Positions 7,601 through 35,641 of a DNA stretch of 64,000 nucleotides are shown here, piece after piece. Position 1 is the stretch's first letter. Each line of letters begins with the position of its first letter. This DNA is from Meridianimaribacter flavus (GTDB taxonomy: Bacteria; Bacteroidota; Bacteroidia; Flavobacteriales; Flavobacteriaceae): positions 381,591-445,590 of the forward strand of contig NZ_SOQZ01000003.1 of assembly GCF_004366715.1 (NCBI RefSeq), in the 5' to 3' direction. The notes under the pieces were generated by a model. The model was not told the origin of the DNA and did no database searches. It saw only the letters and a list, made by a program, of their open reading frames with translations. A program made the translations under genes and the position numbers.

Positions 7601-10600
7601 GGTTTGGTAAGCGATGTAGCAGAAGTGGTAGTGGTTGATGATCCTGTAGTAACAACGCAACCTATTGCATCTCAAAGTTTATGTCAAAATACCAGTGTAC
7701 AAAATTTAGAAGTTGTTGCTAATGGAGGTTTAGGAACAGTGAGTTATCAATGGTATGTAAATACTGTAAATAGTAATACAGGAGGAACCCTAATTGTAGG
7801 AGCAACAAGTAGCACTTACACACCACCAGTTGATACTGTAGGCACGTTTTACTATTACTGCGTGGTGCAGCAAGATGTGTCTGGTTGTGAGGTAGTAAGT
7901 GATACTGCTGAAGTTGAAATTAGTGCAGGCGCGCAATTTACAACTCAACCAATGTCTGATGTATTATGCTTAGGAGAAACAACAGCAACGCTTCAAGTAG
8001 CTTACGTAGACGGAACAGGAACTCCAACATACCAATGGTATGAAAATACAGTTAATGACACCACAACAGGAACAGCTATTGCAGGAGCAACAACAGCAAG
8101 TTATTTACCTGATGTGTCTTCTGTGGGAACCACATTTTATTACTGTATTATAACGTTTAATTCAGGTGGTTGTTCAGAGTTGATTTCTGCAGTTGCTGAA
8201 ATTACTGTTAACGAAACACCAGATATTAGCGATGCAACAGTGTTAATTTGTAGTGGTAACGCGTTTGTACACAATCCAGATGCTACCAATGGAGATACAG
8301 TACCAGCAAATACAATGTATACTTGGTCTACGCCAACGGTTACTCCTGCAGGAAGTAGTGTTGGTGCTTCTGAGCAGTTAACGCCTGTAGCTTCAATAAC
8401 ACAATTTTTAGAAAACACAACAGTTAATCCTTCTACTGTAACTTATACAGTTACGCCTATTTCAGGAAATTGTGTAGGAGCAAATTTTGAAGTGATAGTT
8501 ACTGTAAATCCTTCAATTTCTGTAACTACAACAGTTATTAATAATACCTGCTTTGAGTCTAATAATGCGTCAATAGAAATTGATATTGTTGGAGGTGTGC
8601 CTTTTTCAACAGGAAATCCTTATAATATCGATTGGTCAGGACCTAACGGATTTACAAGTACTAACGAAGATGTTTTTAATCTAGAAGCAGGAACTTATGT
8701 GCTTAACATAGAAGATGATGGAGGTTGTCCTTATACCGAAACTTTTGAAATTATTGAACCAGATGAGCTTGTGTTTAGTGCTGTCAATTTTGATCCTGAT
8801 ACAATATCTTGCTTTGGTGCAAATGATGGGTCAATAGGTATTGATATTTCAGGAGGAACAATGCCTTACACCTATAACTGGACGCTTAATGGAGGTCCTT
8901 TTTCAACGGATGAAGATGTAACAAATTTAGGTCCTGGAGTGTACGAAGTTTCAGTAACCGATGGTAATAGCTGTGGACCAATAACTCAAGAGTTTGTTAT
9001 TGATGAACCTCCTTTGTTAACGGTAAGTTTACTAGACCAAACCAATGTGTTGTGTTTTGGAGATAATACAGGTGCTATTACAATTGAAGCTTCAGGTGGT
9101 CGACCAGACTATACTTTTTCTTGGGTTGGACCAAACGGTTATGCGAGTACTAACCAAGATATTGATACTTTATTTGCTGGTTTATATACAGTAACGGTTA
9201 CAGATAGTTCTAACTGTATTGCTGTTTTAGAAGTTACGATTATTCAAAATGATGAAATAAATATTGATGTGACAACTACCGAAATAGAGTGCTATGGAGA
9301 TAATAATGCATCAATTACAATCAATAACATTTCAGGAGGTGTTCCGCCTTACGACATCGCTTGGAGTAATTTTGGTACAGGTAATAGTCAAACAAACCTT
9401 TCTGCAGGAATTTATACCATTACAATTACTGATGCTGAAAACTGTCAAAGAGATGTTCCGATAGAAATTGAAGAAGCTCCAGTTTTTCTAATAGACCCTG
9501 TTGTTACTCAAATGTCTTGTGCAGGAGAAAACGATGCAAGTATAGCTTTAAATTTAGTTGGAGGAATTGACCCTGTTACGGTCGATTGGAATGACGACCC
9601 AACAGCAGGAGTGGAGCGTAATAATTTAGCACCTGGGACGTATACAGTTACTATTACTGACGGAACACCATGCGTCATTCAAGAAAGTTTTACAATTTTT
9701 GATATCAATCCTTTGGTACTATCTGCCAACATTACTAATGCGCTTGATTGTGATGATACCAACAGTGGTGCAATAAATTTACTCATTCAAGGAGGTACAC
9801 CTCCATTTGATGTGTTGTGGTCTAATGGTGCAACTACCGAAGATTTAGATAGCATACCTCCAAATACCTACACAGTTGTAGTTACTGACGTTAATGGTTG
9901 CGAAGTTCAAGGAAGCTGGGACGTAACAAGGTTTGAACCTCTAGAGTTGCAAGTCGAAACACAGTCTGATGTAGATTGTGAAGCACAAACTGTTAACCAA
10001 ACATTTGTAGCTATGGCAAGTGGAGGAGTACCACCATTTCAATACAATTGGTCAAGCGGTACAGTTAGTGGAGCAAACAATGAATTAATGACTACTGATA
10101 TTAACGGACTAGTGCTTTTAGAAGTTGTAGATAGTCAGGGTTGTACTACCAATTATAGTTTTGATGTAGACATCCCAGTTTTAGGAAACCCAGGATTCGA
10201 GACTACGTCTTTTGGGTTTGAAAACTATGGAGTGTATGCTATTAGCGATCCTATACAGTTTACAAATACTGCAACTGGCGATTTTGAGAGCATTCTGTGG
10301 GATTTTGGAGATGGCAATTTTTCAGCTGAAGAAAATCCAACACATACCTATTTAGAAGTAGGAAACTATGTGGTTACGCAAACAGTAACCTATCCGTTTG
10401 GATGTGTATACACCCATACAATAACGCTTATTGTTGAACCTGGTTATAAACTTATAATGCCTAATGCATTTACACCTAATGAAGATACTTTAAACGATTA
10501 TTTTGGACCTGTTTATGTAGGCTTAAACACCTTAGAAATTAACATATATGATACTTGGGGAAGCCTTATCTACTCAGAGTCTGGAGATGATATTAGAGGT

Positions 10601-13067: not shown

Positions 13068-14720
13068 ATGAAACAGATACTATTTTCATTCCTCTTTTTA
13101 TGTCTTGGATTAAATTCTTGTTTTTCACAACAAGCACTGGATAGCTTATATTTTTACCAAAATAAAGTTCTATATCCCAAAAACGCTACAGATGTATTTC
13201 AATCGTATAAATTCTTCAATGAAAGACTAAAAAAAGCTGAATTAAAAAGCGATATACCTAGCCAATTAAATAGCATGTATTATTTGTCTAGTATCAATTA
13301 TAAACTGGGAGCTTATGATGAAAGCGAGCAAATATCAGTTAAAGCTATAGGTGTTTTGAACAAGCATTCAACTATTCCAAATCGTATACATTATCAAAAA
13401 AGCTTTTATAATCTTTTGGGAATGCTTTATTATGAGCAACAAAATAAAAAGAAATCTTTAAGCCTTTATAATAAGGTGTTAGAGTTGTCGGTAAATGCAA
13501 AAGATAGTGCTATTGTCTATAATAATATTTCTAATACTTATAAAAAACATAATGATTTTAATGAGGCTAAACAAGCATTGTCTAAGGCTTATGATTTAAC
13601 AAAGCGAATAGACGATACATTAACTATTGCGCTTGTAATGGATAATTTAGGATTTATAAATTCAAAGTTATCTAATACTGATGAAGGATTAAGGTTAATG
13701 AAGCAAGCTTTAAAAATGAGGAGTTTTGTTAAAGATACAGTTTCTAAGTATAAAAGTTATACACATTTAGCACAATACTATTTTAATACAGGCAATAGTA
13801 GTTTGGCTAAAGAAAATGCGTTGAAAGCATTTGAAATAGCAGAAAAAATTAAGTCGGCATCCTACAGGCAAGATGCTTTAGGGTTGTTAATAACATTAAG
13901 TGAAGATCCTTATGTTACGCAATATAAAAAAGTAAATGATAGTATAAATAAAGCAGAAAAAGAGACGAAAAATAAATTCGCTTTGCTCAAATATGATTAT
14001 TCTAATTTTGAAAAAAAACTACTATTAAGTCAGTTACAAGAACAAAAACAAAAGTCAAAAACCGTTATTGCTTCTCTAGTAGCTATTGGTGCAGTACTAC
14101 TATCTTTAATTTTATACGTTTTTCTAAAAACAAAACATAGCAAAGACAAACTCTTACAAGTTGTCGAAACTGAATCGCGCATTTCAAATCAAGTACATGA
14201 TGAAATTGCAAATGAAGTGTTTCAAGTAATGATAAAGTTCGATAATCAGGAAGAGAACTCACAAAAAAGCAAACTGATAAAGGAGTTAAACAATTTATAT
14301 TATAAAGCACGAGATATTTCTAAACAACACAGTGTCATAGATGTGAAAAATTCATTTGAAGATAGTTTGATAGAGTTAATGAATAGTTACAATGATACTG
14401 ATACTAATGTAATTATTAAAGGTGTAAAAGACATTGTATGGAAGGGATATTCTGAAATAAATAAAATCACAGTTTACAAGGTGCTACAAGAGTTATTAAT
14501 TAATATGAAAAAACATAGTAAGGCTTCTTTGGTAGTTGTTTCATTTCTGGAAACTAAGGGTAAACTTGAAATAAAATATAGCGACAATGGAGTGGGCTGT
14601 ACTATGAAAAAAGGAAATGGACTAGAAAATACGGAAAACCGTATTCAAGCAATTAATGGAACAATTACTTTTGAATCCAAAGAAAATAAAGGATTTAAAG
14701 CAATAATAAATATTTCATAA
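13068..14720 (+). CDS. TPR-containing sensor histidine kinase
   Basis: 550 residues: signal peptide (MKQILFSFLFLCLGLNSCFSQ), TPR repeats over ~45-290 (for example YNNISNTYKKHNDFNEAKQA), one membrane helix (~333-354), a short H-box (QVHDEIANEVFQV, with H377 as the likely phospho-acceptor), then an HATPase_c domain (LQELLINMKKHSKAS, YSDNGVGCTMKKGNGLENTENRI). This is the NarX/LuxR-type sensor layout common in Flavobacteriia, with a periplasmic TPR sensor. The ATG is preceded by GAGG. Its stop overlaps the response-regulator start (TAATG), so the two are translationally coupled. Confidence 0.88.
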   Translation: MKQILFSFLFLCLGLNSCFSQQALDSLYFYQNKVLYPKNATDVFQSYKFFNERLKKAELKSDIPSQLNSMYYLSSINYKLGAYDESEQISVKAIGVLNKHSTIPNRIHYQKSFYNLLGMLYYEQQNKKKSLSLYNKVLELSVNAKDSAIVYNNISNTYKKHNDFNEAKQALSKAYDLTKRIDDTLTIALVMDNLGFINSKLSNTDEGLRLMKQALKMRSFVKDTVSKYKSYTHLAQYYFNTGNSSLAKENALKAFEIAEKIKSASYRQDALGLLITLSEDPYVTQYKKVNDSINKAEKETKNKFALLKYDYSNFEKKLLLSQLQEQKQKSKTVIASLVAIGAVLLSLILYVFLKTKHSKDKLLQVVETESRISNQVHDEIANEVFQVMIKFDNQEENSQKSKLIKELNNLYYKARDISKQHSVIDVKNSFEDSLIELMNSYNDTDTNVIIKGVKDIVWKGYSEINKITVYKVLQELLINMKKHSKASLVVVSFLETKGKLEIKYSDNGVGCTMKKGNGLENTENRIQAINGTITFESKENKGFKAIINIS

Positions 14721-15385
14721 TGTTTCAAAAAGTTTTAATAAATGACGATCACGATGCAATTCTTTCTAGTATAACACAAATACTGAAAAGCGCTGGAGTT
14801 AATGTGATAGAACGTGCACAGTATTGTGATGAAGCATATTTAAAACTAAAAAAGGCTCAGCTAGAAACTGCAGAATTTGATTTGTTAATAACCGATTTGT
14901 CCTTTAAAAGAGATCATCGAAATGCTAATTTGGAAAATGGAGAAGATCTCATTCAAAAAGTAAGAGAAGACTTTCCAAACATGAGCATCATAGTATATTC
15001 CATGAAAGATCAACTTCAAAAAGTAAGGCTGTTGGTAAATCAATATGGTGTTAATGGATATGTCTGCAAAGATCGTAATGGCTCTAAAGAATTATATGAA
15101 GCTATTAAATCTGTAGCTTTAGGCCAGGTGTTTTTATCTCCACAAGTAGACAGAGCCTTACACCCAAATGCTAATATGGAGATAGATGAGTTTGATATTC
15201 AGCTTATCAACCTTCTGTCCAAAGGATGGTCTCAAGATGATATTAGCGAAGATTTAAAAACGAAAAATATTTCACCCAATAGCTTAAGTACCATTGAAAA
15301 AAGACTTAATAAATTAAAAGTTCAATTTAAAGCCAATAATACAATCCATTTAGTAGCAATCACTAAAGATTTAGGGTTAATTTAA
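14720..15385 (+). CDS. Response regulator, receiver plus LuxR-like output
   Basis: 221 residues. The receiver domain has the acidic pair D9-D10 (LINDDHD), phospho-acceptor D59 (LLITDLSF) and the late lysine in GYVCKD. The output region (~150-221) is a weak LuxR/NarL-type helix-turn-helix: INLLSKGWSQDDISEDL...SLSTIEKRLNKLK. It is encoded directly after its kinase with a 1-base stop/start overlap. The last ten codons and all downstream sequence up to 15544 are duplicated at 22248-22439. It is the obvious candidate to bind the palindromes in those repeats, but that is not shown by sequence. Confidence 0.88.
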   Translation: MFQKVLINDDHDAILSSITQILKSAGVNVIERAQYCDEAYLKLKKAQLETAEFDLLITDLSFKRDHRNANLENGEDLIQKVREDFPNMSIIVYSMKDQLQKVRLLVNQYGVNGYVCKDRNGSKELYEAIKSVALGQVFLSPQVDRALHPNANMEIDEFDIQLINLLSKGWSQDDISEDLKTKNISPNSLSTIEKRLNKLKVQFKANNTIHLVAITKDLGLI

Positions 15386-15582: not shown

Positions 15583-15600
15583 GTAACAAAAGTAATTTTT

Positions 15601-16449
15601 ATGAGTAATTCAAATTCAAAACAATGGAGTTCAGCAACTCCTGGCTACATCATCTTCTTAGTAGACCAATCTGGTTCAATGCAGGAATCTTATGCAGAAG
15701 GAAAAACTAGAGCTGAATTCACCGCACTTGTTATTAATCGTACCATAAACGAACTGATTAACACTAATATGGACGGTGAAAAAGTAAAAGACCGTGTATT
15801 CATTTCTATGATTGGATATGGTGGCAGTAGTGCTCTTGCAGTTGATGACATTAGGTCTGACTACTTAAGTTCATTTGCTGACAATCCATTAAGAATGGAG
15901 CAGTTAAAAAAGAAAGTTTCAGATGGAGCTGGTGGCTTAATCGAAATAGATGAACAGATGCCAATTTTTATCGAACCTACAGCAAATGGCTTGACTCCAA
16001 TGGCTGATGCACTTTCTTTTGCAAAAGAATTAATTGAAGGTTGGCTTCAAAAGAAACCTGATAATCCAGCACCAATTATTATAAATATTTCAGATGGTTT
16101 ACCATATACTGGAGATTCTATTGATACAGCAATGAATAACGCCATTTCTGTTTCAAAAGAAATAATGAACATCAATTCGGCAGATGGAAATCCTTTAATT
16201 TTCAATTGCCATTTAGGAGAAGGACAAACTCATAGTTTTAATGAAAAAGAAAGTGAGCTGTCAGACGATCAAGCGAAATTCTTGTTTAAAGTTTCAAGTA
16301 AAGTTCCTGAATCATACAAGCAAGCTGCCGTGAAACAAGATTTTAAAGCTTTACCAGAGTCAAGAGGTTTTGTATCAAATGCAGACCCTGAATTATTTAT
16401 ACAGTTTATCAATTTTGGTTCTTCTGGTGGTTCAGACAAAATTGCATAA
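15601..16449 (+). CDS. Stand-alone VWA-domain protein, TerY-like
   Basis: 282 residues that are essentially one von Willebrand factor A domain. The metal-ion-dependent adhesion site is complete: D22-x-S24-x-S26 (FLVDQSGSM), T132 (GLTPMADAL) and D165 (IINISDGLP). There is no signal peptide, so it is cytoplasmic. It is first in an operon with PP2C and kinase genes, the order known for TerY-P phosphorylation triads, where the VWA protein is thought to be a metal-dependent assembly partner. A palindrome-overlapped -7 box lies 32 bp upstream. Compared with TerY of tellurite clusters it has a longer C-terminal part (SSKVPESYKQAAVKQDF). Confidence 0.88.
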   Translation: MSNSNSKQWSSATPGYIIFLVDQSGSMQESYAEGKTRAEFTALVINRTINELINTNMDGEKVKDRVFISMIGYGGSSALAVDDIRSDYLSSFADNPLRMEQLKKKVSDGAGGLIEIDEQMPIFIEPTANGLTPMADALSFAKELIEGWLQKKPDNPAPIIINISDGLPYTGDSIDTAMNNAISVSKEIMNINSADGNPLIFNCHLGEGQTHSFNEKESELSDDQAKFLFKVSSKVPESYKQAAVKQDFKALPESRGFVSNADPELFIQFINFGSSGGSDKIA

Positions 16450-16466
16450 CCTTTAAATTGACTTAA

Positions 16467-17702
16467 ATGCAAATATCAATTAAAGGATATATCGCGTCAA
16501 AAGAATCAGAATTATTTTATGATTGTGCAGATAGATATGCCTATAATAAATCGCAAAATAAATTCGCTATTTCTGATGGTGTATCTAAATCTTTCTTTCC
16601 GAAAATATGGGCAGATGTATTAGTTAAAAAGTGGGTCGATTCTAAAGAATTTGATGAAGCTCAATTTATTTTAGACTGTCAACAGGACTGGCTAAATCAA
16701 GTAACTGAAGTCGTTAATAAGCCTGATGCCAAGTGGTTCACAAAAAATGCTTTTAATAGAAAAGAATCTGGGTTGGCAACTTTTGTTGGTTTAAGATTTT
16801 TCAAGAAAAAAACAGACTGGTTTTGGAAGGCAAACGCTTTAGGAGATAGTTTTTTGTTTTTCGTTCCAAATAAATTCAAAGATTTTTCGAAGGAGTGTAT
16901 TGTGTTATCTTCAAAACAAGAGCCTATTGTTTTTGACAACTTTCCAGATTATTTAAACAGTTTAGGTAAAAATCACAAAGGAGAAAAACAGTTAAAAGAG
17001 AATCCTTTGATAACTGGCTCATTTTATTTGATGACAGATGCTTTAGCAGAATGGTTTTTAAATGAAAAGGAAGATGCGTTAAATAAGATTAGTCTTTGGC
17101 AAAATCAAAAAGATTTTGAGCGTTTTGTAAATGAGGAAAGACACAATGAGAAATTAGGTAATGACGATTCAGCCATTTTGATAATCTCGATAGAAGAAGA
17201 TAAGAAAGATAAACTTACTTATGTTTTAGAGGACGTTTCGGACATTGATGCCCTTATAAAAATTCAACAAAAAGAAATTGAGGATTCTGAAAAAGCTAAA
17301 GAACAAAAATTAGTGGTTCAAAAAGAAAACTCAAATTCTGCAATAGAAACAGAACAATTACAACAAGTTGAACCTGAAGAAAACAAACTTTCCGAAGAAT
17401 TAGAAACTGAAATCGAAAAGCCAAAGAAAGGTTTCTTCAAAAGAATATTTGGCGAAGAAGAAAATGAGTTGTCAAATGAAAAGGAAGAAATCGAAGCTGA
17501 TGAAAAAATAAAAGCAACAGGAGTACATCAAGAAGAAAAAAAACCTTCAACTAAAGGCGAACAAAATAATAGCGAGATTGAGAAATCTGAAAATCCAGAA
17601 AAGAACGAAAGTCAAGAAAGTGAACAAAATAGTAAAGAAGAACCTGAATCAAGTGCTAAAACACCAAACAAGCCTTCTCAAAATATAACAGATAAATTCT
17701 AG
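16467..17702 (+). CDS. PP2C-like phosphatase with long charged tail
   Basis: 411 residues. The first ~245 keep the PP2C (PPM) metal/phosphate motifs: ISDGVSKSF (D37, G38), ALGDSFLF (G126, D127), LMTDALAEW (D191) and GNDDSAIL (D233, D234). Residues ~250-405 are low-complexity Glu/Lys/Ser, broken only by a basic-aromatic island KKGFFKRIFG near residue 320. The last residues are QNITDKF, a tail shared with the next two proteins. The likely role is to reverse phosphorylation by the cassette kinases. It starts 17 bp after the VWA stop and ends 2 bp before the first kinase start. Confidence 0.87.
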   Translation: MQISIKGYIASKESELFYDCADRYAYNKSQNKFAISDGVSKSFFPKIWADVLVKKWVDSKEFDEAQFILDCQQDWLNQVTEVVNKPDAKWFTKNAFNRKESGLATFVGLRFFKKKTDWFWKANALGDSFLFFVPNKFKDFSKECIVLSSKQEPIVFDNFPDYLNSLGKNHKGEKQLKENPLITGSFYLMTDALAEWFLNEKEDALNKISLWQNQKDFERFVNEERHNEKLGNDDSAILIISIEEDKKDKLTYVLEDVSDIDALIKIQQKEIEDSEKAKEQKLVVQKENSNSAIETEQLQQVEPEENKLSEELETEIEKPKKGFFKRIFGEEENELSNEKEEIEADEKIKATGVHQEEKKPSTKGEQNNSEIEKSENPEKNESQESEQNSKEEPESSAKTPNKPSQNITDKF

Positions 17703-17704
17703 CT

Positions 17705-18712
17705 ATGTCAAATTATCCTTCCAGAACAGACATTGTAACCGCAATGCGTAATCCACACGTCAGTTTTAAATCAACCGAAATAATTGGTGGTTCCATTATT
17801 CAAAAAGGTTCTAGGATAATTCAGTATTCAGGTGGCTACACAACTGTTTTTCCATTTCATAAACAAACAGGAAATAAAGTAGCTATTCGACTTTGGATTG
17901 CTGACATAGGAGATGCAAAAAAACGGTCGCTTGAAATATCCAATTATTTGGAGAAATTAAACAACTCCTATTTTGCAGGATTCAAATATATTGATGATGC
18001 AGTATTGGTGAATGGAACGTTACATCCAATTGTGCTAATGGATTGGATTGATGGTCAAACTTTAAAAGAATATATCAACTCCAATATTACAAACGCATCT
18101 AAAATTCTTGATTTAGCAGAAAAATTCAAAGAAATGACAGCATATTTTCATAGAGAGAATATTGCTCACGGAGATTTACAACACGGAAACATCTTGGTAA
18201 AAAATGATGGCACACTTGTGGCTATTGATTATGATTCAATGTTTATTGAGCCTTTAAACGGAATGACTGACACAATCAAAGGTTTACCAGGTTATCAGCA
18301 TCCCGCAAGACATAGCAATAAATGTGTCAATCCAAGATTAGACTACTTTTCTGAACTTGTAATTTATCTATCCCTTTTAATTTATGCAGACACGCCAAAA
18401 TTATGGGATGATTACTATGAAACAGAAGATTTACTTTTTTCAAAAGATGACTTTGCAAATCCTAGTAATTCAAAACTAATCAGCAATCATTTAAAATCAA
18501 CCAACACAGCTATTTCAGAACTTACAGAAAAATTAGTTGAAGAACTTGCAGCTACTGACATCAATCAATTACGTCCTTTAGAAGAATTACTAATTAATAA
18601 ACGTGAGGCTGCTAAAGACAATATTTTTAATAAGTGGGATAACCAACCGAATCCAGCACAAAAAAAACAAGTTGTTTTACCCAACAAGAATGATATAACC
18701 AACAAATTCTAA
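17705..18712 (+). CDS. TerY-P-type protein kinase 1
   Basis: 335 residues of protein-kinase-like fold. Catalytic loop HGDLQHGNILV (H155, D157, N162) and metal-binding DYD in place of DFG (I174-DYDSM) are present. The usual VAxK lysine position reads VAIRLW (R62). After the kinase core (~1-270) comes a short helical tail ending NDITNKF. Kinases of this subfamily occur with VWA and PP2C genes in TerY-P triads. Whether Arg can replace Lys in ATP binding is open; the same change in the second kinase suggests a family trait rather than decay. It is separated from the next gene by one base. Confidence 0.87.
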   Translation: MSNYPSRTDIVTAMRNPHVSFKSTEIIGGSIIQKGSRIIQYSGGYTTVFPFHKQTGNKVAIRLWIADIGDAKKRSLEISNYLEKLNNSYFAGFKYIDDAVLVNGTLHPIVLMDWIDGQTLKEYINSNITNASKILDLAEKFKEMTAYFHRENIAHGDLQHGNILVKNDGTLVAIDYDSMFIEPLNGMTDTIKGLPGYQHPARHSNKCVNPRLDYFSELVIYLSLLIYADTPKLWDDYYETEDLLFSKDDFANPSNSKLISNHLKSTNTAISELTEKLVEELAATDINQLRPLEELLINKREAAKDNIFNKWDNQPNPAQKKQVVLPNKNDITNKF

Positions 18713-18713
18713 T

Positions 18714-19364
18714 ATGATAATCAAGCTTCAAGAAAATATAATTAAATGTGAAAAGATTTTAAGAGATTTTGAAGACGATTCAATATACAAGTTCTATAAA
18801 ATGCTAGGAGGCAAAGGAAGGTTTGAAAATTCAATTAGAAATATTTCCATCAATTCAATAAATCTTAGAAACAAAATTATAGTCGACATTGAAGCAACTA
18901 TAAGAGCCACGAACAATAAAGACCTCATTAGAATAATAGAAAACAATTATTTTAACCAGATCACTAATGCTGCCACACAAGAAAGCCTAATACGTATTGT
19001 GAATTTAAATAGCATTAGTATTCCTCCAACAGCTATGAACATAATAACGCAGGACGATAAGGTTATTAATTTCATTAATTCCATTTCAACAAATATTACT
19101 AGCTACAATAATGAAATATCCAATTTTAGACAACTTTGGAATAGGTTTAAACTTACTCTTTATTCGTTTCCTCCAATACAAGTTTATCCCGAAATTTTAG
19201 ATGGTCAAATCAATTTAATTAATCTTATTCAAGCTCATAATAATTCGGGAAATATTACAGCAAAAAACACAGTTTCTATCTCACCTGCTGCCGCTATTAA
19301 AGCTAAACCTAGTAAACAAAAAGCAAAGAATTCAAATGCCAAAAATATTACTAACAAGTTTTAA
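18714..19364 (+). CDS. Helical protein of unknown function in cassette
   Basis: 216 residues that I cannot assign to a family. It is predicted mainly alpha-helical, rich in Ile/Asn, without signal peptide or membrane helix. Residues ~175-210 are a flexible Ala/Lys/Asn linker (AKPSKQKAKNSNAK) and the protein ends NITNKF, the same tail as its two upstream neighbours. It lies between two kinases with 1-bp and 9-bp gaps. A substrate or adaptor of the kinases is a reasonable guess but is inference. Confidence 0.75.
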   Translation: MIIKLQENIIKCEKILRDFEDDSIYKFYKMLGGKGRFENSIRNISINSINLRNKIIVDIEATIRATNNKDLIRIIENNYFNQITNAATQESLIRIVNLNSISIPPTAMNIITQDDKVINFINSISTNITSYNNEISNFRQLWNRFKLTLYSFPPIQVYPEILDGQINLINLIQAHNNSGNITAKNTVSISPAAAIKAKPSKQKAKNSNAKNITNKF

Positions 19365-19373
19365 CTCCTATAT

Positions 19374-20795
19374 ATGGCTAATAAGCAGGATATATTAACA
19401 GCAATAAAGAATTTAGACCTTTTCTTAAAAGTTCCTGCTTTAAAAGGTGCAAAAGCGCGAATAAATAAAAATGGAAATCCATTTGTTTATGTAGGCGGTT
19501 TCAATATGGTTTTTCAACTAACCCACAAATCTAAAAAATGGGCGTTTCGTGTTTGGCACGTTCCTATGGGCGAAAATGAAGAACGATATTTAAAAATTTC
19601 AAAATACTTAACCTCTAAAAAGTTACCCTATTTCGCAGAGTTTATATATGACGAAAAAGGACTCCTTATAAATGGAGAATTGGTTGATACGATAAGAATG
19701 GAATGGTTAGATGGGATGCTATTCAAAGAATACATTGAAAAGAATCTTGCCAACCCTTCACTTTTAGTTTCACTTGCAGATAGTTTCTTGAAAATGTGCC
19801 AAGATTTGAGAGACAATCATATTTCTCACGGAGATTTACAAGAAGGTAATATTTTAGTAACCGAAAAAGGCGATATAAAGCTCGTTGATTACGATTCTAT
19901 TTGCATTCCAGAAATTGAAGGTCAAAAAGAATTTGTAACTGGTCTTAAAGGTTATCAGCATCCGACTCGCTTCAAAGGTGGGAGAGCTACATTAAAAGCA
20001 GATTACTTTTCAGAATTGATTATTTATCTGTCAATTCTTGGAATAGCTGAAAAACAAGACCTTTGGGAGAAATATCAAGTCAAAGACACACAATACTTGT
20101 TGTTTTCTGAAACTGATTTTGAAGATTTAGAAAATTCAAATATTTATAAAGACCTATCTGGGCTATCCTTAAAAACAGATAAGTTACTTGACATTCTAAT
20201 TGAATATCTAAAAACGGCAAATTATACGGAATTAAAACCCTTTGCCCTCTATTTAGCACCTCCTGTCATAACAACATTTACAAGTGATAAAGAAGTATTA
20301 ATTCAAGGTAGCGAGATTACTCTTACTTGGGAAGTTAAAAACGCATTAAAAGTCTTGATAAACAATGGTGTAAATGAAGTTGAGCATTTTGGAAGTGTAG
20401 TTTTAAAACCACAAGACAAATTTGAATATGTTTTAACTGCAATTGGTTTTAACGAAACTGTGGTTGAAAAACTTGAATTAAGAGTTTTTCCTACTCCGAT
20501 TATTAAAAGTATTCAAGTCCCTATTCCATTATTTGAGAAAACGACCAATTTAGGGGTAAATCTTCCAGAGTTTCCAAATATAGAATTAGGAATAATTAAT
20601 TTCTCAAACAACCTTAATGTGAACTTGAACAATACTGTTACTAGTTCTTTTGAAGAAATCAAATTTAATTCGCTTGATAAAAATTTTAGTAGCCTAAATG
20701 AAAAAAAGAGCGGTTTAAATAAAATTTTTAAAGCAGTAAATAATAGTAAAATCATATCCAAAATATTTAACAATCAACCGAATGAAAAGAATTAA
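19374..20795 (+). CDS. TerY-P-type kinase 2 with Ig-like C-terminal domain
   Basis: 473 residues. The kinase core (~1-280) is a paralogue of kinase 1: WAFRVW (R59 at the VAxK position), HGDLQEGNIL (H152, D154, N159) and VDYDSI (D172, D174). Residues ~296-380 form a beta-sandwich/Ig-like domain: ITTFTSDKEVLIQGSEITL, then W, VEHFGSVVLKP and YVLTAIGF. Similar cytoplasmic Ig-like domains follow kinases in this family. The tail (~385-473) is low complexity and ends KIISKIFNNQPNEKN, lacking a clean NITNKF motif. The last 14 bases overlap the DUF4407 gene. Confidence 0.86.
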   Translation: MANKQDILTAIKNLDLFLKVPALKGAKARINKNGNPFVYVGGFNMVFQLTHKSKKWAFRVWHVPMGENEERYLKISKYLTSKKLPYFAEFIYDEKGLLINGELVDTIRMEWLDGMLFKEYIEKNLANPSLLVSLADSFLKMCQDLRDNHISHGDLQEGNILVTEKGDIKLVDYDSICIPEIEGQKEFVTGLKGYQHPTRFKGGRATLKADYFSELIIYLSILGIAEKQDLWEKYQVKDTQYLLFSETDFEDLENSNIYKDLSGLSLKTDKLLDILIEYLKTANYTELKPFALYLAPPVITTFTSDKEVLIQGSEITLTWEVKNALKVLINNGVNEVEHFGSVVLKPQDKFEYVLTAIGFNETVVEKLELRVFPTPIIKSIQVPIPLFEKTTNLGVNLPEFPNIELGIINFSNNLNVNLNNTVTSSFEEIKFNSLDKNFSSLNEKKSGLNKIFKAVNNSKIISKIFNNQPNEKN

Positions 20796-22164
20796 CAAGT
20801 TTTTTTGGTGGTGTGCGGGTGCCAACATCGAAGTTTTAGAAAAATGTCCAACTGACCACGCAAAGTATTTTGGAGTAGGTGGCACAATTGTCTTTACAGC
20901 TTTAATGGCAAGTTTTGCTGGAGGTTATGCCTTTTTCACAGCTTTTAAGTCGGTAGTACCATCACTTTTTTTTGGTGCATTTTGGGGTTTGTTAATTTTC
21001 AACTTAGATAGATACATTGTTTCCACTATTGGTAAAGGAGACGGAACTCAAAAAATTACTGTTGAAGAATGGAAATTAGCAGCACCTAGACTTTTAATGG
21101 CAATACTTTTAGGTTTTGTTATTTCAACACCTTTGGAGTTAAAAATTTTTGAAACTGAAATTCAAACTGTTGTTGAGCGTTTAAAAATTGATAAAGCTGT
21201 AGAATTGCAAAATCGCGATACGACTTTTATCTCAAATTTAAACAACTTAAAAGAAAGAAGGACTTCAATAGACAATGACATCAATAAATTAACTTATGAT
21301 AAAACTAGCCTATCTGAAAACGCGGGTAAATTTTTTGAAAATTCTATTGCAGAACAAAAAGTTGATTTAAAAAATAAACAATCAGTTCTTGAAGTATGGC
21401 AAAGAAAGGTAAACTCATCATATAGTTCTTATGTACAAGCTAAAAATGATTCGTTATCCAATGCAATCATAAATAAACGACTAGGAGTATTGCGAGCTAA
21501 TCAAGCTGAAAGAAATAAAGTTAGAAAAGAAGTACAATCTATTCAAGACAACATAGAAGACTTAAACAACAATAAAGGGAATGCAATAATTGATGAGAAA
21601 AATAGAATTAATAATTTGCTGGCAAGCAAACAACAGGAGAAAGTAAATTTAAATGAGCAAATAGCTTCAAAACAGAAGACTTTAGATAAAAAGAATATTG
21701 GCTACGAAAATAAAACTGAAAATTATAATGGTTTTGCAGCACATCTTGAAGCTATGAGTATATTAACAAGTGAGAAATCGGCAGTCTTTTGGGCAAAATG
21801 GTTAATTACACTCCTCTTTATTTTCATTGAAGTTGCTCCTGTTCTATTTAAACTGATGGCAGAATCTGGTCCTTATGATGATATGATGGATAGACTAAAA
21901 CACGAATCATTTGTTAAAGAACAACAGAAAATTTCTGACATCAATGACAATATCAATACTTTTATAAAAATTTCCACAGAGAAAAACCAAAATAAATTAG
22001 ATGCAGAAATTGCAGGAAACAAAGCCTTGCTAAATAAAATTGCATTGGCACAGGCAGAAATTGCAGAATTGGCGGTAGAAAAATGGAAAGAAGAAGAATT
22101 GAATAAGCTAGAAAACGGGGTAAACCATATTATTAACTATAATAAATGTAATACAAGCTATTAA
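20782..22164 (+). CDS. DUF4407 membrane protein with long coiled coil
   Basis: 460 residues. It opens with the DUF4407 pattern FFWWCAGANIEVLEKCPTDH. Membrane helices follow near 30-52, 58-78 (FWGLLIFNLDRYIVSTI) and 100-120; then ~210 residues of Lys/Glu/Gln-rich heptads (~130-330), a fourth helix (WLITLLFIFIEVAPVLFKLM, ~338-358) and a second coiled coil. Its start lies inside the end of the kinase 2 gene (14-bp overlap), so it belongs to the cassette. An inner-membrane end point of the kinase/phosphatase relay, possibly the effector, is a plausible role, but DUF4407 has no fixed function that I know. Confidence 0.85.
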   Translation: MKRINKFFWWCAGANIEVLEKCPTDHAKYFGVGGTIVFTALMASFAGGYAFFTAFKSVVPSLFFGAFWGLLIFNLDRYIVSTIGKGDGTQKITVEEWKLAAPRLLMAILLGFVISTPLELKIFETEIQTVVERLKIDKAVELQNRDTTFISNLNNLKERRTSIDNDINKLTYDKTSLSENAGKFFENSIAEQKVDLKNKQSVLEVWQRKVNSSYSSYVQAKNDSLSNAIINKRLGVLRANQAERNKVRKEVQSIQDNIEDLNNNKGNAIIDEKNRINNLLASKQQEKVNLNEQIASKQKTLDKKNIGYENKTENYNGFAAHLEAMSILTSEKSAVFWAKWLITLLFIFIEVAPVLFKLMAESGPYDDMMDRLKHESFVKEQQKISDINDNINTFIKISTEKNQNKLDAEIAGNKALLNKIALAQAEIAELAVEKWKEEELNKLENGVNHIINYNKCNTSY

Positions 22165-25891: not shown

Positions 25892-27484
25892 ATGACCCAA
25901 CAAAACATAAAACAACTAGAAACTGAACTTTGGGACGCAGCAGACGACCTAAGAGCCAATTCTAAATTGACCGCTGCCGAATACAAAGACCCATTATTAG
26001 GTCTAGTACTACTGCGTTTTGCACAAAACCGATATGAAGATGCCAAAATTGAAGTGCAAAACAACCTTCCTATAAATCCGCGTACTGGAGAAAAACGAGA
26101 AGCCAATAAAGAAGATTATACCGCAGCTGGTGCCATTATGTTACCAGAAAAAGCCAAATACGATTATTTAGCCAATTTACCAGAAAGCGAAGATATAGCA
26201 CAAGCTATTAATAATGCCATGAAGCTTATTGAAGCCGAATACCCAGATCTAGAAGGTATTCTGCCAAAAAGCTACCAAGAGTTTGATGACAAACTACTGC
26301 GCGATTTAGTACGTGTATTTAATAAAGACGCCGTAAAAAATGCTAAAGGCGATGTGTTTGGACGCATTTATGAGTTTTTCTTAATGAAATTCTCAATGCA
26401 AGGAGCAGGCGCTCAAGAGGGAGGTGAATTCTTTACACCACCATCGTTAGTTAGCCTTATTGTTAATTTTATACAACCTAATCATGGTATTGTACACGAT
26501 CCAGCTTGTGGCTCTGGCGGTATGTTTGTGCAAACCGCACATTTTATAAAAGACCACGATAACAAAAGCGTTAACGAAGCCATTACCGTGTATGGTACAG
26601 AGTTAAAAAGCAACAACACACGTTTAGCCAAAATGAACCTTGCTATACACGGTATAGAAGGCAAGATTATAGAAAGCAACAGCTTTTATAGCAATCCGCA
26701 TAACCTTAATGGTAAGTGCGACTTTGTTATGGCAAATCCGCCATTTAACGTAGATAAAATTGACGCTAAAAATAAATTTTTAGCAGATGACGAGCGTTTA
26801 CCCTTTGGCGCACCACTAACGGGAAAAGGCACCATAAGCAATGGTAATTATTTATGGATGCAGTATTTTCATTCGTATTTAAACGAAACTGGTAGAGCAG
26901 GTTTTGTTATGGCTAGTAGTGCTACCGATGCTGGTAATGCCGAAAAACTAATACGCCAAAAACTGATAGAAACAGGCGATGTAGAATGTATTGTAGCTAT
27001 AAGCAACAACTTTTTTTACACGCGTAGCTTACCGTGTCACGTGTGGTTTTTTAATAAAGGCAAGAGCAAAGAAAACAAAGACAAGGTGCTTATGATAGAT
27101 GCCCGCAACACCTTTAGAAAAGTAAGCACTACCATTAACGACTTTAGCGACGACCAACTAGAAGGTTTAACCGCTATTATGAACGCTTTTAGAACCAATA
27201 ATCCTGAAGCTGTCAGTTCGAGCGCAGTCGAGAACGCTTGGTTATCAGAACACTTCCCAAAAGGCACATACCAAGACGTAGAAGGCCTATGCAAAATAGC
27301 CACACTAGACGAAATTAAAGAACAAGACTACAGCCTTACACCAGGACGCTACGTAGGTGTAAAGATTGATATAGATATGGACTTTGACTATAAAGGCAGA
27401 ATGCGCGACATACATACCGAACTAGCCCAACTAAACACCGAAGCCAATACCCTAATGCAACAAATACAAAGTGTCAAGCTATGA
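25892..27484 (+). CDS. hsdM: Type I restriction-modification methyltransferase HsdM
   Basis: 530 residues. An N-terminal helical HsdM domain (~1-160) precedes the gamma-class N6-adenine methylase core. Motif I is HDPACGSGGMF (D203) for S-adenosylmethionine binding and motif IV is NPPF (282-285) for catalysis. It methylates adenine at the site set by HsdS and is also part of the restriction complex. Length and motifs are complete. The stop overlaps the hsdS start (ATGA). With only 9 bp to the MORN gene, its promoter is either shared or inside that gene. Confidence 0.96.
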   Translation: MTQQNIKQLETELWDAADDLRANSKLTAAEYKDPLLGLVLLRFAQNRYEDAKIEVQNNLPINPRTGEKREANKEDYTAAGAIMLPEKAKYDYLANLPESEDIAQAINNAMKLIEAEYPDLEGILPKSYQEFDDKLLRDLVRVFNKDAVKNAKGDVFGRIYEFFLMKFSMQGAGAQEGGEFFTPPSLVSLIVNFIQPNHGIVHDPACGSGGMFVQTAHFIKDHDNKSVNEAITVYGTELKSNNTRLAKMNLAIHGIEGKIIESNSFYSNPHNLNGKCDFVMANPPFNVDKIDAKNKFLADDERLPFGAPLTGKGTISNGNYLWMQYFHSYLNETGRAGFVMASSATDAGNAEKLIRQKLIETGDVECIVAISNNFFYTRSLPCHVWFFNKGKSKENKDKVLMIDARNTFRKVSTTINDFSDDQLEGLTAIMNAFRTNNPEAVSSSAVENAWLSEHFPKGTYQDVEGLCKIATLDEIKEQDYSLTPGRYVGVKIDIDMDFDYKGRMRDIHTELAQLNTEANTLMQQIQSVKL

Positions 27485-28779
27485 GGGAAGGATGGAGTGA
27501 AGTAAGATTAATTGAAGTTACTTCAAAAATAGGTAGTGGAGTTACACCAAGAGGAGGTTCAAGTGTATACGTAGAGAAAGGAATACCTATTTTCAGAAGT
27601 CAAAATATTTATAATGGAGAATTTTCAACAAGTGGATTAGCCTATATAAATGATACAATTGCTTCTAAAATGAAAAATGTTGAAGTTGTTGAGGATGATG
27701 TATTATTGAATATTACTGGTGATTCTGTCGCTAGATGTTGTATACCACCACGAGAATTTATACCTGGAAGAGTAAATCAACATGTTTCAATAATTAGACC
27801 AAGAAAAGAAAAGTTAAACCCGAGATATTTGATGTATTCATTAATCTCACCGCGAATGCAAGCGACCTTGTTAGCTTTTGCTTCTGGTGCAGGCGCTACA
27901 AGAAATGCGTTAACAAAAAGTGTCTTGGAAAATACCAAAATCAACCTACCACCACTAAAAACCCAACGCAAAATAGCATCCATTTTATCCGCCTATGATG
28001 ATTTAATAGAAAACAACCTAAAGCGCATTAAACTATTAGAAGAACAAGCACAACTCACCTATGAAGAGTGGTTTGTACGCTTTAAATTTCCTGGTCATGA
28101 AACCACAAAGTTTGATGAAGACACTGGATTGCCTGAGGGTTGGGAAAAGGTGAAGGCTTCTGATTTATTTGATATTCAAGGAGGAACACAACCACCAAAA
28201 AGCAGTTGGTTAGATGTTCAAAAAGATGGTTATGTTAGAATGGTTCAAATTCGTGATTATTACACAGATTCCCACATAGCTTATGTTAGAAATAATTCTA
28301 AACTACGTAGATGTTCAAAGGAAGATATTATGATAGCTAGATATGGTGCTTCTGTAGGGAGAATTTGTTATGGTATTGAAGGAGTTTATAATGTTGCTTT
28401 GGTTAAGGTTGTGCCTTATAAAAAATCCCATAGAGAATTTTTACGATGGTATTTGAAATCTGATTTTTTTCAATCAAACTTGCTTAATAAAACCCAAAGA
28501 ACAGCACAAGACGGTTTTAATAAGGGGACATTTAAATCCTTAAAACTAAACAAACCAAATAAAGTTATTATTGAAAAATTTAACTTATATGCTATTCCTC
28601 TATTTAATTTTATTGAAAAACTTAAAAATCAAAACCAACACTTAAAAGAAGCGCGAGATATCTTGTTACCACGCTTAATGAGTGGGATGATAGATGTAGA
28701 GAAGCCTGAAATTGGAAGCTTGAAGTATGAAGTTAATGATAGTTTGGGTATGGTGGCAGAGGAGAAAAGTGAATATTAA
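27481..28779 (+). CDS. hsdS: Type I restriction specificity subunit HsdS
   Basis: 432 residues in the usual two-half layout. The first target-recognition domain is ~1-150 (EVTSKIGSGVTPRGGS, GIPIFRSQNIYNG). The central conserved helix is ~155-205 (LPPLKTQRKIASILSAYDDL). The second target-recognition domain is ~215-370 (DLFDIQGGTQPPKSSW). The distal helix is ~380-410 (NQHLKEARDILLPRLMSGMI). It sets the DNA sequence recognised by HsdM and HsdR. Both halves are intact. It is joined to hsdM by a 4-base overlap and followed after 12 bp by the McrB-like gene instead of hsdR. Confidence 0.95.
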   Translation: MREGWSEVRLIEVTSKIGSGVTPRGGSSVYVEKGIPIFRSQNIYNGEFSTSGLAYINDTIASKMKNVEVVEDDVLLNITGDSVARCCIPPREFIPGRVNQHVSIIRPRKEKLNPRYLMYSLISPRMQATLLAFASGAGATRNALTKSVLENTKINLPPLKTQRKIASILSAYDDLIENNLKRIKLLEEQAQLTYEEWFVRFKFPGHETTKFDEDTGLPEGWEKVKASDLFDIQGGTQPPKSSWLDVQKDGYVRMVQIRDYYTDSHIAYVRNNSKLRRCSKEDIMIARYGASVGRICYGIEGVYNVALVKVVPYKKSHREFLRWYLKSDFFQSNLLNKTQRTAQDGFNKGTFKSLKLNKPNKVIIEKFNLYAIPLFNFIEKLKNQNQHLKEARDILLPRLMSGMIDVEKPEIGSLKYEVNDSLGMVAEEKSEY

Positions 28780-28791
28780 AAATTACAGTAA

Positions 28792-30876: not shown

Positions 30877-30881
30877 AAAGA

Positions 30882-32327
30882 ATGGAGATAAGTATTCCCA
30901 ATAATCATAATTACTATGAAGAAGATCCATTAAGTGAAGCATACTTAAGAGAACAGACTGGAATACGCTCAAAAAAAAAATCAAGAGATTTAGTTAATAA
31001 TTTGTTTTCTTCGGTTTTTGAATTAAAAACAAATAACACAAAACTAAAGAAATTACAAATTGTTGGATTTAAAAATCAAAAAAATAAAGAAGAAGATAAT
31101 TTAATTTTAAAACTTTATACTAAAGAAATTTCTGAAAATCAAAAAGAGTATTTTATACAGTCTGGCTTATTTTCTGGTGTGGTTTATCATAAAGGCTGCA
31201 AATTTAATATAACAACTAGACATGGTGATGTTTTTCTTCGTAGAATGCTAAATTTTGTAAATGATATTTATGTAGATAAAGAAAATTCAAACGCCTCTAG
31301 GAAAGAAGAATACAATGATTTTCAATACATTATATCTTATCTATTCATAGAGTCTTTAGAAAAAGCTTCGGTCTTAGGTTTGCCTAAAGAATACCAAAGT
31401 ATTACACAACGCAGTCACAAGGTAAGAGGAAAAATAGATTTAAATGCGTATCTAAAAAAAGATATTCCTTTTCAAGGAGAATTAACAACAACATATAGAG
31501 AGCAAGTTTATATTAAAGAAATTTGTGATGTCTTGTATTTAACTTTAAAGAAGCTAGAAAGAAAGTTTGGTAAGGATATTAATAACAAATTGTTTAATAT
31601 TAATCAATTGCTAAAACAAAATTACTCTGGTCAATATGTAAATATAGAAACTTTACATAAGGCAAAAAAACATAGAATTCTTCATAATCCATTATATGCA
31701 CCATTTAAAAACGTTATTGAATATGCAGAGATAATATTGTTAGAGCATGATTTAAATCCAAAAGAGAATAATACGCTTGAAACTTCAGGTTATTTATTTG
31801 ATGTTTCACAATTATTTGAAGTCTATTTAGAAAAACTTTTAAGTCGACATTTTAAAGATTGGTATTTAACAGGACAAGAGGAATTGAAATTGTATCAAGG
31901 CTTATTTTACAGTCGTAAAATGTTTCCAGATTTAGTCTTAAAACATAAGTATTCCAATAAGATTATTGTTTTTGATGCAAAATTTAAAAAGATGCACTTA
32001 GAAACAAAACAAAGCAAATATTCAGATTTAGATAGAAGCGACTTTTACCAAATACATACTTATATTCAATATTTTCAGCAAGATGTCATTATTGGAGGTT
32101 TATTGTATCCTTTATCAAAACCTTTAAATAAAGAAAAAGCATATTCAAATAGTTTGTTTGGTAAAGAAGATTCAAATACAATTAAGTTTATTGTTGATGG
32201 TGTTTTTGTAAATGAAAATATGAATATGGAACAATTGTTAAATTCTGAGCAAGAATTTTTAACTAGGATTGATACATTGATTGAAAGTAGTTTAAATTTA
32301 AAAGAACAATATTTTGAAGTAACATAA
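30882..32327 (+). CDS. McrC-like PD-(D/E)XK endonuclease subunit
   Basis: 481 residues with the McrC layout. The N-terminal beta/helical region (~1-290) contains FNITTRHGDVFLRRMLNFVN and an RGKIDL motif. The PD-(D/E)XK nuclease core is near 345-400, with PD (D350), an Ile/Val strand then DAK (D365, K367) and DFYQIHTYIQYF. It partners the AAA+ protein upstream to cut DNA bearing a recognised, probably modified, site. One base separates its stop from the hsdR start, so it is embedded in the type I operon. Confidence 0.87.
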   Translation: MEISIPNNHNYYEEDPLSEAYLREQTGIRSKKKSRDLVNNLFSSVFELKTNNTKLKKLQIVGFKNQKNKEEDNLILKLYTKEISENQKEYFIQSGLFSGVVYHKGCKFNITTRHGDVFLRRMLNFVNDIYVDKENSNASRKEEYNDFQYIISYLFIESLEKASVLGLPKEYQSITQRSHKVRGKIDLNAYLKKDIPFQGELTTTYREQVYIKEICDVLYLTLKKLERKFGKDINNKLFNINQLLKQNYSGQYVNIETLHKAKKHRILHNPLYAPFKNVIEYAEIILLEHDLNPKENNTLETSGYLFDVSQLFEVYLEKLLSRHFKDWYLTGQEELKLYQGLFYSRKMFPDLVLKHKYSNKIIVFDAKFKKMHLETKQSKYSDLDRSDFYQIHTYIQYFQQDVIIGGLLYPLSKPLNKEKAYSNSLFGKEDSNTIKFIVDGVFVNENMNMEQLLNSEQEFLTRIDTLIESSLNLKEQYFEVT

Positions 32328-32328
32328 T

Positions 32329-35538: not shown

Positions 35539-35641
35539 TAGTAATATTTTTAAATGATCTTTTTTAGTTCATCTAAAATCAAAGTTTAGTTTTACCATCT
35601 CATTTATGCATTTATAAAAATCTAGGATATAATTTAATTAA

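What the first reader, a model, noticed from the sequence alone, without database searches (positions are those of the whole stretch)
17660..19364. Three consecutive proteins share the C-terminal peptide NIT(N/D)KF
The PP2C protein ends QNITDKF, kinase 1 ends NDITNKF and the unknown helical protein ends KNITNKF, in each case right at the stop codon after a flexible linker. Codons differ at synonymous positions (ACA/ACC/ACT, AAA/AAG, TTC/TTT), so the peptide rather than the DNA appears conserved. The proteins are otherwise unrelated. A common docking tail for one partner, for example the DUF4407 or VWA protein, a localisation signal or a protease-recognition tag would explain it. The motif is not in the VWA or DUF4407 proteins and only loosely echoed in kinase 2. 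I know of no description of it.
Basis: seen in the sequence. Interest (0 to 1): 0.82.

Follow-up and report, generated by a model that had tools for sequence, protein, structure and literature searches.

The report
Shared docking tail in TerY-P-type cassette
In a bacterial gene cassette related to a known anti-phage system, a phosphatase, a kinase and an exchangeable third protein all end in the same six-residue peptide, which looks like a common plug into one partner protein and stays in place even when the third protein is swapped for an unrelated one.

Summary
PP2C, kinase 1 (K1) and ORF3 end NITDKF, DITNKF and NITNKF. I compared 11 distinct cassettes from Bacteroidota. The 29 in-frame tails all fit [NSDE]-[IV]-x-[DNSK]-K-F at the C-terminus. 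Tails occur in 11/11 PP2Cs, 10/10 K1s and 8/9 third genes (the ninth is frameshifted before its tail), but in 0/11 VWAs, 0/11 kinase 2s (K2) and 0/9 DUF4407 proteins. The PP2C tail is nearly fixed (85% pairwise identity) behind a linker at 18%. In 7 of 9 cassettes the third gene is a PLD-family protein unrelated to ORF3 yet with the same tail. The window's ORF3 sits between flanks about 85% identical in DNA to a PLD-type cassette, so the gene was exchanged and the tail kept. K1 and PLD also carry an internal copy. The cassette is a TerY-P-like (VWA–PP2C–kinase) module in a defence island. Best reading: a cassette-private docking motif recruiting phosphatase, kinase and an interchangeable effector to a motif-free hub, VWA (favoured) or K2. 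DUF4407 cannot be the general receptor: two tailed genomes lack the family. Receptor and function are inferred; two structure predictions were too weak, and more distant TerY-P triads lack the tail.

The parts
15601..16449 (+). VWA (TerY-like) protein, 282 aa; carries no tail motif; favoured hub/receptor
   Evidence: PADLOC TerY PDLC02224 E=5.3e-54; Pfam VWA_2 3.1e-05, just under its cut-off; MIDAS-type residues D22, S24, S26, T132, D165 invariant in 10 rows, 57-94% identity of nine relatives to the window (L078 not in that alignment)
16467..17702 (+). PP2C-type phosphatase, 411 aa, catalytic domain plus long acidic linker
   Evidence: PADLOC PP2C PDLC02222 E=1.4e-26, residues 11-244; linker not conserved
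17682..17699 (+). C-terminal tail NITDKF of PP2C
   Evidence: present in 11 of 11 cassettes
17705..18712 (+). Kinase 1 (K1), 335 aa
   Evidence: PADLOC STK_OB PDLC02223 E=1.2e-54, Pfam Pkinase 3.1e-09; K1 and K2 are sister clades
18620..18637 (+). Internal motif copy NIFNKW of K1, 24 residues before the end
   Evidence: 9 of 9 K1s that have the C-terminal extension; aligns with the C-terminal SIISKF of the L078 K1
18692..18709 (+). C-terminal tail DITNKF of K1
   Evidence: 10 of 10
18714..19364 (+). ORF3, predicted helical protein, 216 aa, no Pfam/NCBIfam/PADLOC match; third gene, presumed effector
   Evidence: helices only from a weak model; one relative found, in L059 (60% identity); region 18741-19342 lies between DNA matches to L055, whose third gene is PLD
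19344..19361 (+). C-terminal tail NITNKF of ORF3
   Evidence: third genes 8 of 9 in frame, ninth frameshifted
19374..20795 (+). Kinase 2 (K2), 473 aa, kinase domain plus C-terminal part that looks beta-rich (by eye); no motif copy; second receptor candidate
   Evidence: PADLOC STK_OB E=9.7e-50 over residues 10-265, OB part of the model not matched; 0 of 11 carry the motif
20782..22164 (+). DUF4407 protein, 460 aa; no motif copy
   Evidence: Pfam PF14362 E=2.2e-67; 0 of 9 carry the motif; family absent from the genomes of L067 and L078

Best explanation
The hexapeptide is a cassette-private C-terminal docking motif. SHOWN: phosphatase, kinase 1 and third-gene product carry it; VWA, kinase 2 and DUF4407 do not; it is conserved behind poorly conserved linkers; it is kept when the third gene is replaced by an unrelated gene; K1 and PLD carry a second, internal copy about 20-24 residues upstream. 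INFERRED: the motif plugs these three 'clients' into a motif-binding site on a hub present in every tailed cassette, most likely the VWA protein, with kinase 2 second. Holding PP2C, K1 and effector on one hub keeps opposing kinase and phosphatase activities next to the effector. On a trigger such as phage infection the phosphorylation balance shifts and the effector (PLD-family protein in most cassettes, ORF3 here) is released or activated. The tail works as a plug that lets effectors be exchanged.
For: Clean split of motif carriers and non-carriers over 11 cassettes: terminal motif 11/11 PP2C, 10/10 K1, 8/9 third; 0/11 VWA, 0/11 K2, 0/9 DUF4407. Conservation of the last five residues against positions 6-50: PP2C 0.85 v 0.18, ORF3 0.80 v 0.20, PLD 0.79 v 0.32, K1 0.80 v 0.50; K and F codons differ in 18 and 28 of 55 PP2C pairs. 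Third-gene exchange with tail kept: PLD (PLDc_2, E 2e-23 and 6e-27 for the two scanned) versus ORF3; flanks 84.6% and 84.8% DNA-identical to L055; VWA and K1 trees put the window with PLD-type cassettes, apart from the other ORF3 cassette. K1/PLD C-terminal modules align (hhalign probability 96%, 0/200 column shuffles as high; still 0/200 without the last 9 residues). Tail-bearing cassettes form one VWA clade, 100/100. L067 (no K1, no third gene) and L078 (no third gene) keep tails in genomes without DUF4407, leaving VWA and K2 as the motif-free proteins common to all 11.
Against: No binding shown. The AlphaFold2 model of a VWA-PP2C read-through was poor (mean pLDDT 47, tail about 27) and showed no docking. 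VWA versus K2 rests on conservation and on general knowledge of VWA domains, not on a test. Effector roles of PLD and ORF3 are guesses from position and, for PLD, family; no trigger or phage phenotype is known. More distant TerY-P triads have no such tail on the nine PP2Cs read, so the tail is not needed for the basic system. One third gene (L056) has lost the in-frame tail by a frameshift. K and F codons do not vary among the 15 PLD pairs.
Confidence: 0.6

Rival explanations
1. The receptor is kinase 2 rather than VWA: the tail is a kinase-docking motif that brings substrates (PP2C, K1, effector) to K2, in the way hydrophobic-motif peptides dock on eukaryotic AGC kinases such as PDK1 (analogy recalled).
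For: K2 is present in all 11 cassettes and free of the motif; K1, its sister paralogue, carries the tail instead; L067 keeps K2 and a PP2C tail without K1.
Against: No structural support was obtained. K2 is less conserved than VWA, and the L078 K2 lacks the C-terminal extension, so the site would have to be in the kinase domain. Spacing I-x-x-K-F differs from the recalled F-x-x-F.
Confidence: 0.25
2. The tail is a C-terminal degron or processing site that sets the levels of the three proteins together.
For: It is strictly C-terminal in PP2C and ORF3 and ends in a hydrophobic residue.
Against: Internal copies exist in K1 and PLD. It was found on almost no other protein of the own genome and in one clade of the cassette only; a general host protease would be expected to use it more widely. 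A cassette-encoded adaptor is not excluded.
Confidence: 0.1
3. Localisation signal: the tail carries the three proteins to the DUF4407 protein.
For: A DUF4407 gene follows the cassette in 9 of 11 cases (only the window's was scanned with Pfam).
Against: The genomes of L067 and L078, both about 99% complete, keep tails and have no DUF4407 match at E<=0.001. DUF4407 shares only 61% in a pair whose VWA is 99% identical. I lowered this from 0.07 to 0.04.
Confidence: 0.04
4. Shared 3' ends are only a trace of recombination or duplication between neighbouring genes, without function.
For: K1 and PLD ends are similar over about 30 residues; the DNA match to L055 right of the exchanged gene starts inside the tail codons; PLD tail K and F codons do not vary.
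Against: The peptide is conserved while linkers are not; K and F codons vary synonymously in PP2C and K1; the motif persists over deep divergence (L078 K1 51% identical). How the tails arose is separate from why they are kept.
Confidence: 0.05

Closest known systems
TerY-P (TerY-phosphorylation triad: VWA + PP2C + Ser/Thr kinase; anti-phage per Gao et al. 2020 as cited in PMC11090510 and PMC7699616, passages seen)
   Same: Same three core proteins by PADLOC models, order VWA-PP2C-kinase; defence genes nearby. TerY-P protects Pseudomonas aeruginosa against phages (PMC10889362, passages seen).
   Different: Two kinases, an exchangeable third gene, DUF4407, and a shared C-terminal motif on PP2C, K1 and third gene; the kinase C-terminal OB-fold was not detected. 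Triads outside the clade have no KF tail in the rows read; 11 of their 20 kinases whose C-terminus was read carry a W-W motif at or near the end (3 further kinases, L022, L027, L030, not read).
Effector-associated domains (EADs) of NTP-dependent conflict systems (Kaur et al. 2020, PMC7159879, passages seen)
   Same: The logic: a shared module on core and effector components recruits exchangeable effectors.
   Different: EADs are folded domains proposed to act by homotypic interaction; here a six-residue peptide sits on clients and the presumed hub lacks it, so the contact would be heterotypic.
PDZ- or hydrophobic-motif-type C-terminal docking peptides (recalled)
   Same: Short C-terminal peptide with a terminal hydrophobic residue behind a flexible linker.
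   Different: No PDZ domain was reported by Pfam in the window's cassette proteins at E<=0.1; receptor unknown.

Membership tests
TerY-P | TerY-like VWA protein | tested here: met
   PDLC02224 E=5.3e-54; MIDAS-type residues invariant in 10 rows
TerY-P | PP2C phosphatase encoded next to it | tested here: met
   PDLC02222 E=1.4e-26
TerY-P | Ser/Thr kinase of the STK_OB family | tested here: met
   K1 1.2e-54, K2 9.7e-50; HGDxxxxN and DYD motifs present
TerY-P | Kinase fused at its C-terminus to an OB-fold or zinc ribbon (as described in PMC11090510) | tested here: not met
   STK_OB model matched only up to position 306 (K1) and 267 (K2) of 562; no OB or zinc-ribbon domain listed by Pfam for K1, K2 or the K2 relatives scanned. 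So TerY-P-like, not filed as the OB or zinc-ribbon type.
TerY-P | Anti-phage activity | not testable with these tools
   Neighbourhood only: type I RM and Mokosh-type genes downstream in the window
Effector-associated domain (EAD) systems | Same folded adaptor domain on core and effector proteins | tested here: not met
   Shared element is a 6-residue motif; none in VWA, K2 or DUF4407; no shared Pfam domain between third gene and core
PLD (HKD) family third gene in relatives | PLDc_2 domain with HxK(x4)D motif | tested here: met
   PF13091 E=2e-23 (L055) and 6e-27 (L062), two of seven scanned; H93, K95, D100 invariant in all seven rows. ORF3 in the window has no such match.

The most novel reading that the evidence does not exclude
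A bacterial phospho-signalling defence module uses a short C-terminal linear motif as a universal plug: kinase, phosphatase and interchangeable effectors all dock on the same motif-binding hub, so any protein that acquires the hexapeptide can become an effector of the system. That would also give TerY-P-like systems physical effectors (a PLD-family protein, or ORF3).
Probability: 0.45. Interest if true: 0.85.

Novelty: new variant of a known kind. Interest (0 to 1): 0.72.

Why it matters
How TerY-P systems work, what their kinases phosphorylate and what harms the phage is open as far as the listings and passages I saw show. A shared tail that marks phosphatase, kinase and third protein as clients of one partner points to the assembly logic and to the likely effectors, and is testable with six-residue peptides. 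It would be an example of effector exchange by a short motif rather than by a domain, and a tag with which to search for further effectors.

Tried and rejected
Structure prediction: a VWA-PP2C read-through of L060 (A14, 16 rows) gave mean pLDDT 47 and tail about 27; ORF3 (A7, 2 rows) gave 47.6, all helical, tail about 33. Both too weak, so no fold search was run. The ORF3-K2 read-through was aligned, but the L059 ORF3 row was misaligned, and it was not folded.

More cassettes: viral contigs gave none with K1, VWA, K2 or ORF3 queries; phage records none with VWA; plasmids none with ORF3 and two distant cyanobacterial triads with K1 or VWA, both without the tail. Order and family samples added few.

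Unlinked clients: a pattern for tails with S, T, C or R at -6 and I at -5 (so blind to N-type tails) in 11 tailed genomes gave 32 matches, reversed-pattern control 22; those that end ORFs over 80 aa are cassette genes plus two related proteins of about 400 aa ending IKNKF (L089, L107). In the own genome a 92-aa ORF (L137) ends IHNKF. Taken as chance. Matches without a locus were not read (2, 5).

Idea that the W-W motif of other kinases is the same thing: no evidence, left open. A DUF4407 receptor was rejected.

Rows: 11 distinct cassettes counted (window, L055-L062, L067, L078); L042/L036/L039/L084 are L060 again and L063/L065 are L058 again. L056 PLD was left out of the tail counts because its tail is out of frame, and is counted as a miss. 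The VWA of L061 was taken from position 4832 although the ORF opens at 4667. The trees used 11 of the non-tailed VWAs and 7 of 10 K1s and 8 of 11 K2s; L079 was labelled tail-less there although its contig stretch shows no PP2C or kinase, so its state is unknown.
Full report
Observation. The three ORFs at 16467-17702, 17705-18712 and 18714-19364 end NITDKF, DITNKF and NITNKF directly before their stops, with different synonymous codons. They lie in a tight gene row VWA - PP2C - K1 - ORF3 - K2 - DUF4407 (15601-22164; gaps of 17, 2, 1 and 9 bases and one overlap). PADLOC models name TerY, PP2C and twice STK_OB, so this is a TerY-P-like module; Pfam names DUF4407. ORF3 matches nothing in Pfam, NCBIfam or PADLOC at E<=0.1.

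Not chance. In the own genome (3.2 Mb) the I-T-[DN]-K-F-stop pattern occurs 4 times, 3 of them here; the fourth is not at the end of an ORF of 90 aa or more. The count itself is not above the reversed-pattern control (3); the point is three adjacent in-frame gene ends. Of 487 distinct ORFs of at least 100 aa in the loci held, 29 fit the motif, and all 29 belong to this cassette type.

Relatives. They are rare: 3 of 397 family genomes including the own one with a K1 profile at E<=1e-25, which in L067's genome caught K2 only; 2 of 395 order genomes including the own one with a VWA profile at E<=1e-60.

The tail. Over 29 in-frame tails the last six positions are N13 S12 D3 E1; I27 V2; T18 F6 L2 M1 I1 S1; D18 N8 S2 K1; K29; F29. 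Ungapped pairwise identity of the last five residues against positions 6-50 from the end is 0.85 v 0.18 (PP2C), 0.80 v 0.50 (K1), 0.79 v 0.32 (PLD) and 0.80 v 0.20 (ORF3, one pair). Where K and F are the same, codons differ in 18 and 28 of 55 PP2C pairs and in 16 and 16 of 45 K1 pairs; in the 15 PLD pairs they do not differ. In L067 the PP2C lacks nearly the whole acidic linker and still ends SVFDKF.

Who has it and who does not. A regular expression written from the tails, allowing A at the third-last position and F or W at the end, finds: VWA 0 of 11 proteins; K2 0 of 11; DUF4407 0 of 9; PP2C 11 of 11 terminal; K1 10 of 10 terminal, and 9 internal copies each followed by exactly 24 residues; third gene 8 of 9 terminal and 6 internal copies, in 6 of 7 PLD proteins (the seventh, L058, has KIMEKW there). 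The ninth third gene (PLD of L056) ends early by a frameshift; a matching tail is legible in another frame.

Internal copy. The K1 of L078 (51% identical) stops just where the others have the internal copy: its C-terminal SIISKF aligns with NIFNKW. So the internal copy of K1 is probably the older tail, and the present tail was added by a C-terminal extension (inference). The C-terminal modules of K1 and PLD align with hhalign probability 96%, score 43.1 against a maximum of 18.9 in 200 column shuffles; with the last nine residues cut off the score is 28.8 against a maximum of 19.4.

Exchange of the third gene. In L055-L058 and L060-L062 the third gene is a PLD-family protein (PLDc_2 E=2e-23 and 6e-27 for the two scanned; H93, K95, D100 invariant in 7 rows). 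In the window and L059 it is ORF3 (60% identical to each other). The window's DNA matches L055 from 15595 to 18740 (84.6%) and from 19343 to 22143 (84.8%) and not between; the right-hand match starts in the tail codons. VWA and K1 trees place the window with L055, L056 (and L057 for K1), which have PLD, apart from L059. So a third gene was exchanged while the tail was kept or re-acquired. L060 and L062 come from different bacterial families but share 99% of VWA and 98% of PLD, while K1, K2, PP2C and DUF4407 share 88, 82, 68 and 61%, so the cassette, or parts of it, moves between distant hosts (inference).

Phylogeny. The 11 tailed cassettes form one VWA clade (100/100) in a tree of 22 VWAs; the other 11 were chosen from those at hand, and for L079 the tail state is unknown because its contig stretch shows no PP2C or kinase. 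In a kinase tree with 7 of 10 K1s and 8 of 11 K2s, K1 and K2 are sister clades, so the kinase was duplicated at the base, and L067 probably lost K1. Triads outside the clade carry no KF tail on the 9 PP2Cs read or the 20 kinases read. Of those 20 kinases, 11 have a W-W motif at or near the C-terminus behind a flexible linker, possibly a different docking end; three more (L022, L027, L030) were not read.

Which partner. The only motif-free proteins common to all 11 cassettes are VWA and K2. DUF4407 is excluded as a general partner: the genomes that hold L067 and L078 (about 99% complete) have no match to the family at E<=0.001, while the own genome has two. I favour VWA: it is better conserved than K1, K2 and PP2C (57-94% to the window in nine relatives, against 45-86% for K2), it has an intact MIDAS-type set of residues, and VWA domains bind proteins (general knowledge; peptide interaction of VWA proteins in related gene sets is also suggested in PMC7159879, passage seen). 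This is a preference, not a test: roughly 0.45 VWA, 0.25 K2, the rest other. Two structure predictions failed to reach useful confidence.

Function. Downstream in the window lie genes matched by PADLOC as type I RM methyltransferase, specificity and restriction subunits and Mokosh MkoA/MkoB. Of four neighbours of relatives that I scanned, three match defence models: a type I methyltransferase (L057), SspB (L058) and a helicase-like candidate, PDC-M27C (L059); one in L061 matches none. TerY-P is a tested anti-phage system (PMC10889362, passages; PMC7699616, passage; PMC11090510, passages). A defence role is therefore likely but untested. That PLD and ORF3 are effectors is inferred from their exchangeability, and for PLD from its family.

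Literature. Searches for TerY with PP2C, kinase, vWA and tellurium, DUF4407 or TerY (swamped by old papers with the broken word 'dysen-tery' and of little use), C-terminal motif with effector and anti-phage, TerY-P/STK-OB, DUF4407, TerY phosphorylation triad and four tail hexapeptides (one unrelated walnut paper) showed no listing that describes this tail. Only open-licence PMC papers are searched and I saw listings and passages, no whole paper. Gao et al. 2020 and Anantharaman et al. 2012 were not read, only cited through other papers.

Noticed in passing
window 25892-40338: Defence island downstream: HsdM, HsdS and HsdR (within 25892-35538), with two ORFs at 28792-32327 that look McrB/McrC-like by eye (no PADLOC match at 1e-20), then Mokosh-type MkoA (E=9.6e-143) and MkoB (E=3.4e-30) at 35642-40338.
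   Followed up: partly
L023, L026, L031, L032, L046, L048-L053 (no-KF triads of the same phylum): These STK_OB-type kinases carry a W-W motif at or near the C-terminus behind a linker: 11 of 20 kinases read. Possibly a different docking tail.
   Followed up: partly
L082 4872-11128 (G908): A relative without KF tails: PLDc_2 protein with a DnaJ match, VWA, PP2C, kinase and a DUF4407-like ORF (the last named by eye) in one row, so the PLD/TerY-P/DUF4407 link is older or recurrent.
   Followed up: partly
window 13068-15385; L042 15314-17791; L056 81-1984: A sensor-kinase/response-regulator pair (TPR histidine kinase in the window; the others by eye) lies near the cassette in at least three loci, in different orientations; possibly chance.
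   Followed up: no
L060 10388-10984; L061 10370-10942; L062 5703-6311: An extra gene of about 190-200 aa lies between K2 and DUF4407 in these three cassettes; no Pfam match above cut-off for the two scanned; only 27% identical between L060 and L062, whose VWAs are 99% identical.
   Followed up: no
window 17888-17890 (K1) and 19548-19550 (K2): The residue at what looks like the usual ATP-binding lysine position is Arg in K1 and K2 of the window; K and R both occur across the 15 family members aligned.
   Followed up: partly
L056, end of the PLD gene (8008-8559): The PLD third gene of F. segetis is shortened by a frameshift close to its end, so it lacks the tail in frame; sequencing error or recent loss.
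   Followed up: partly
own genome, G000:C1:530057-530914 (L142): A second DUF4407 gene elsewhere in the own genome scores higher against the Pfam model (E=6.1e-106) than the one in the cassette.
   Followed up: no
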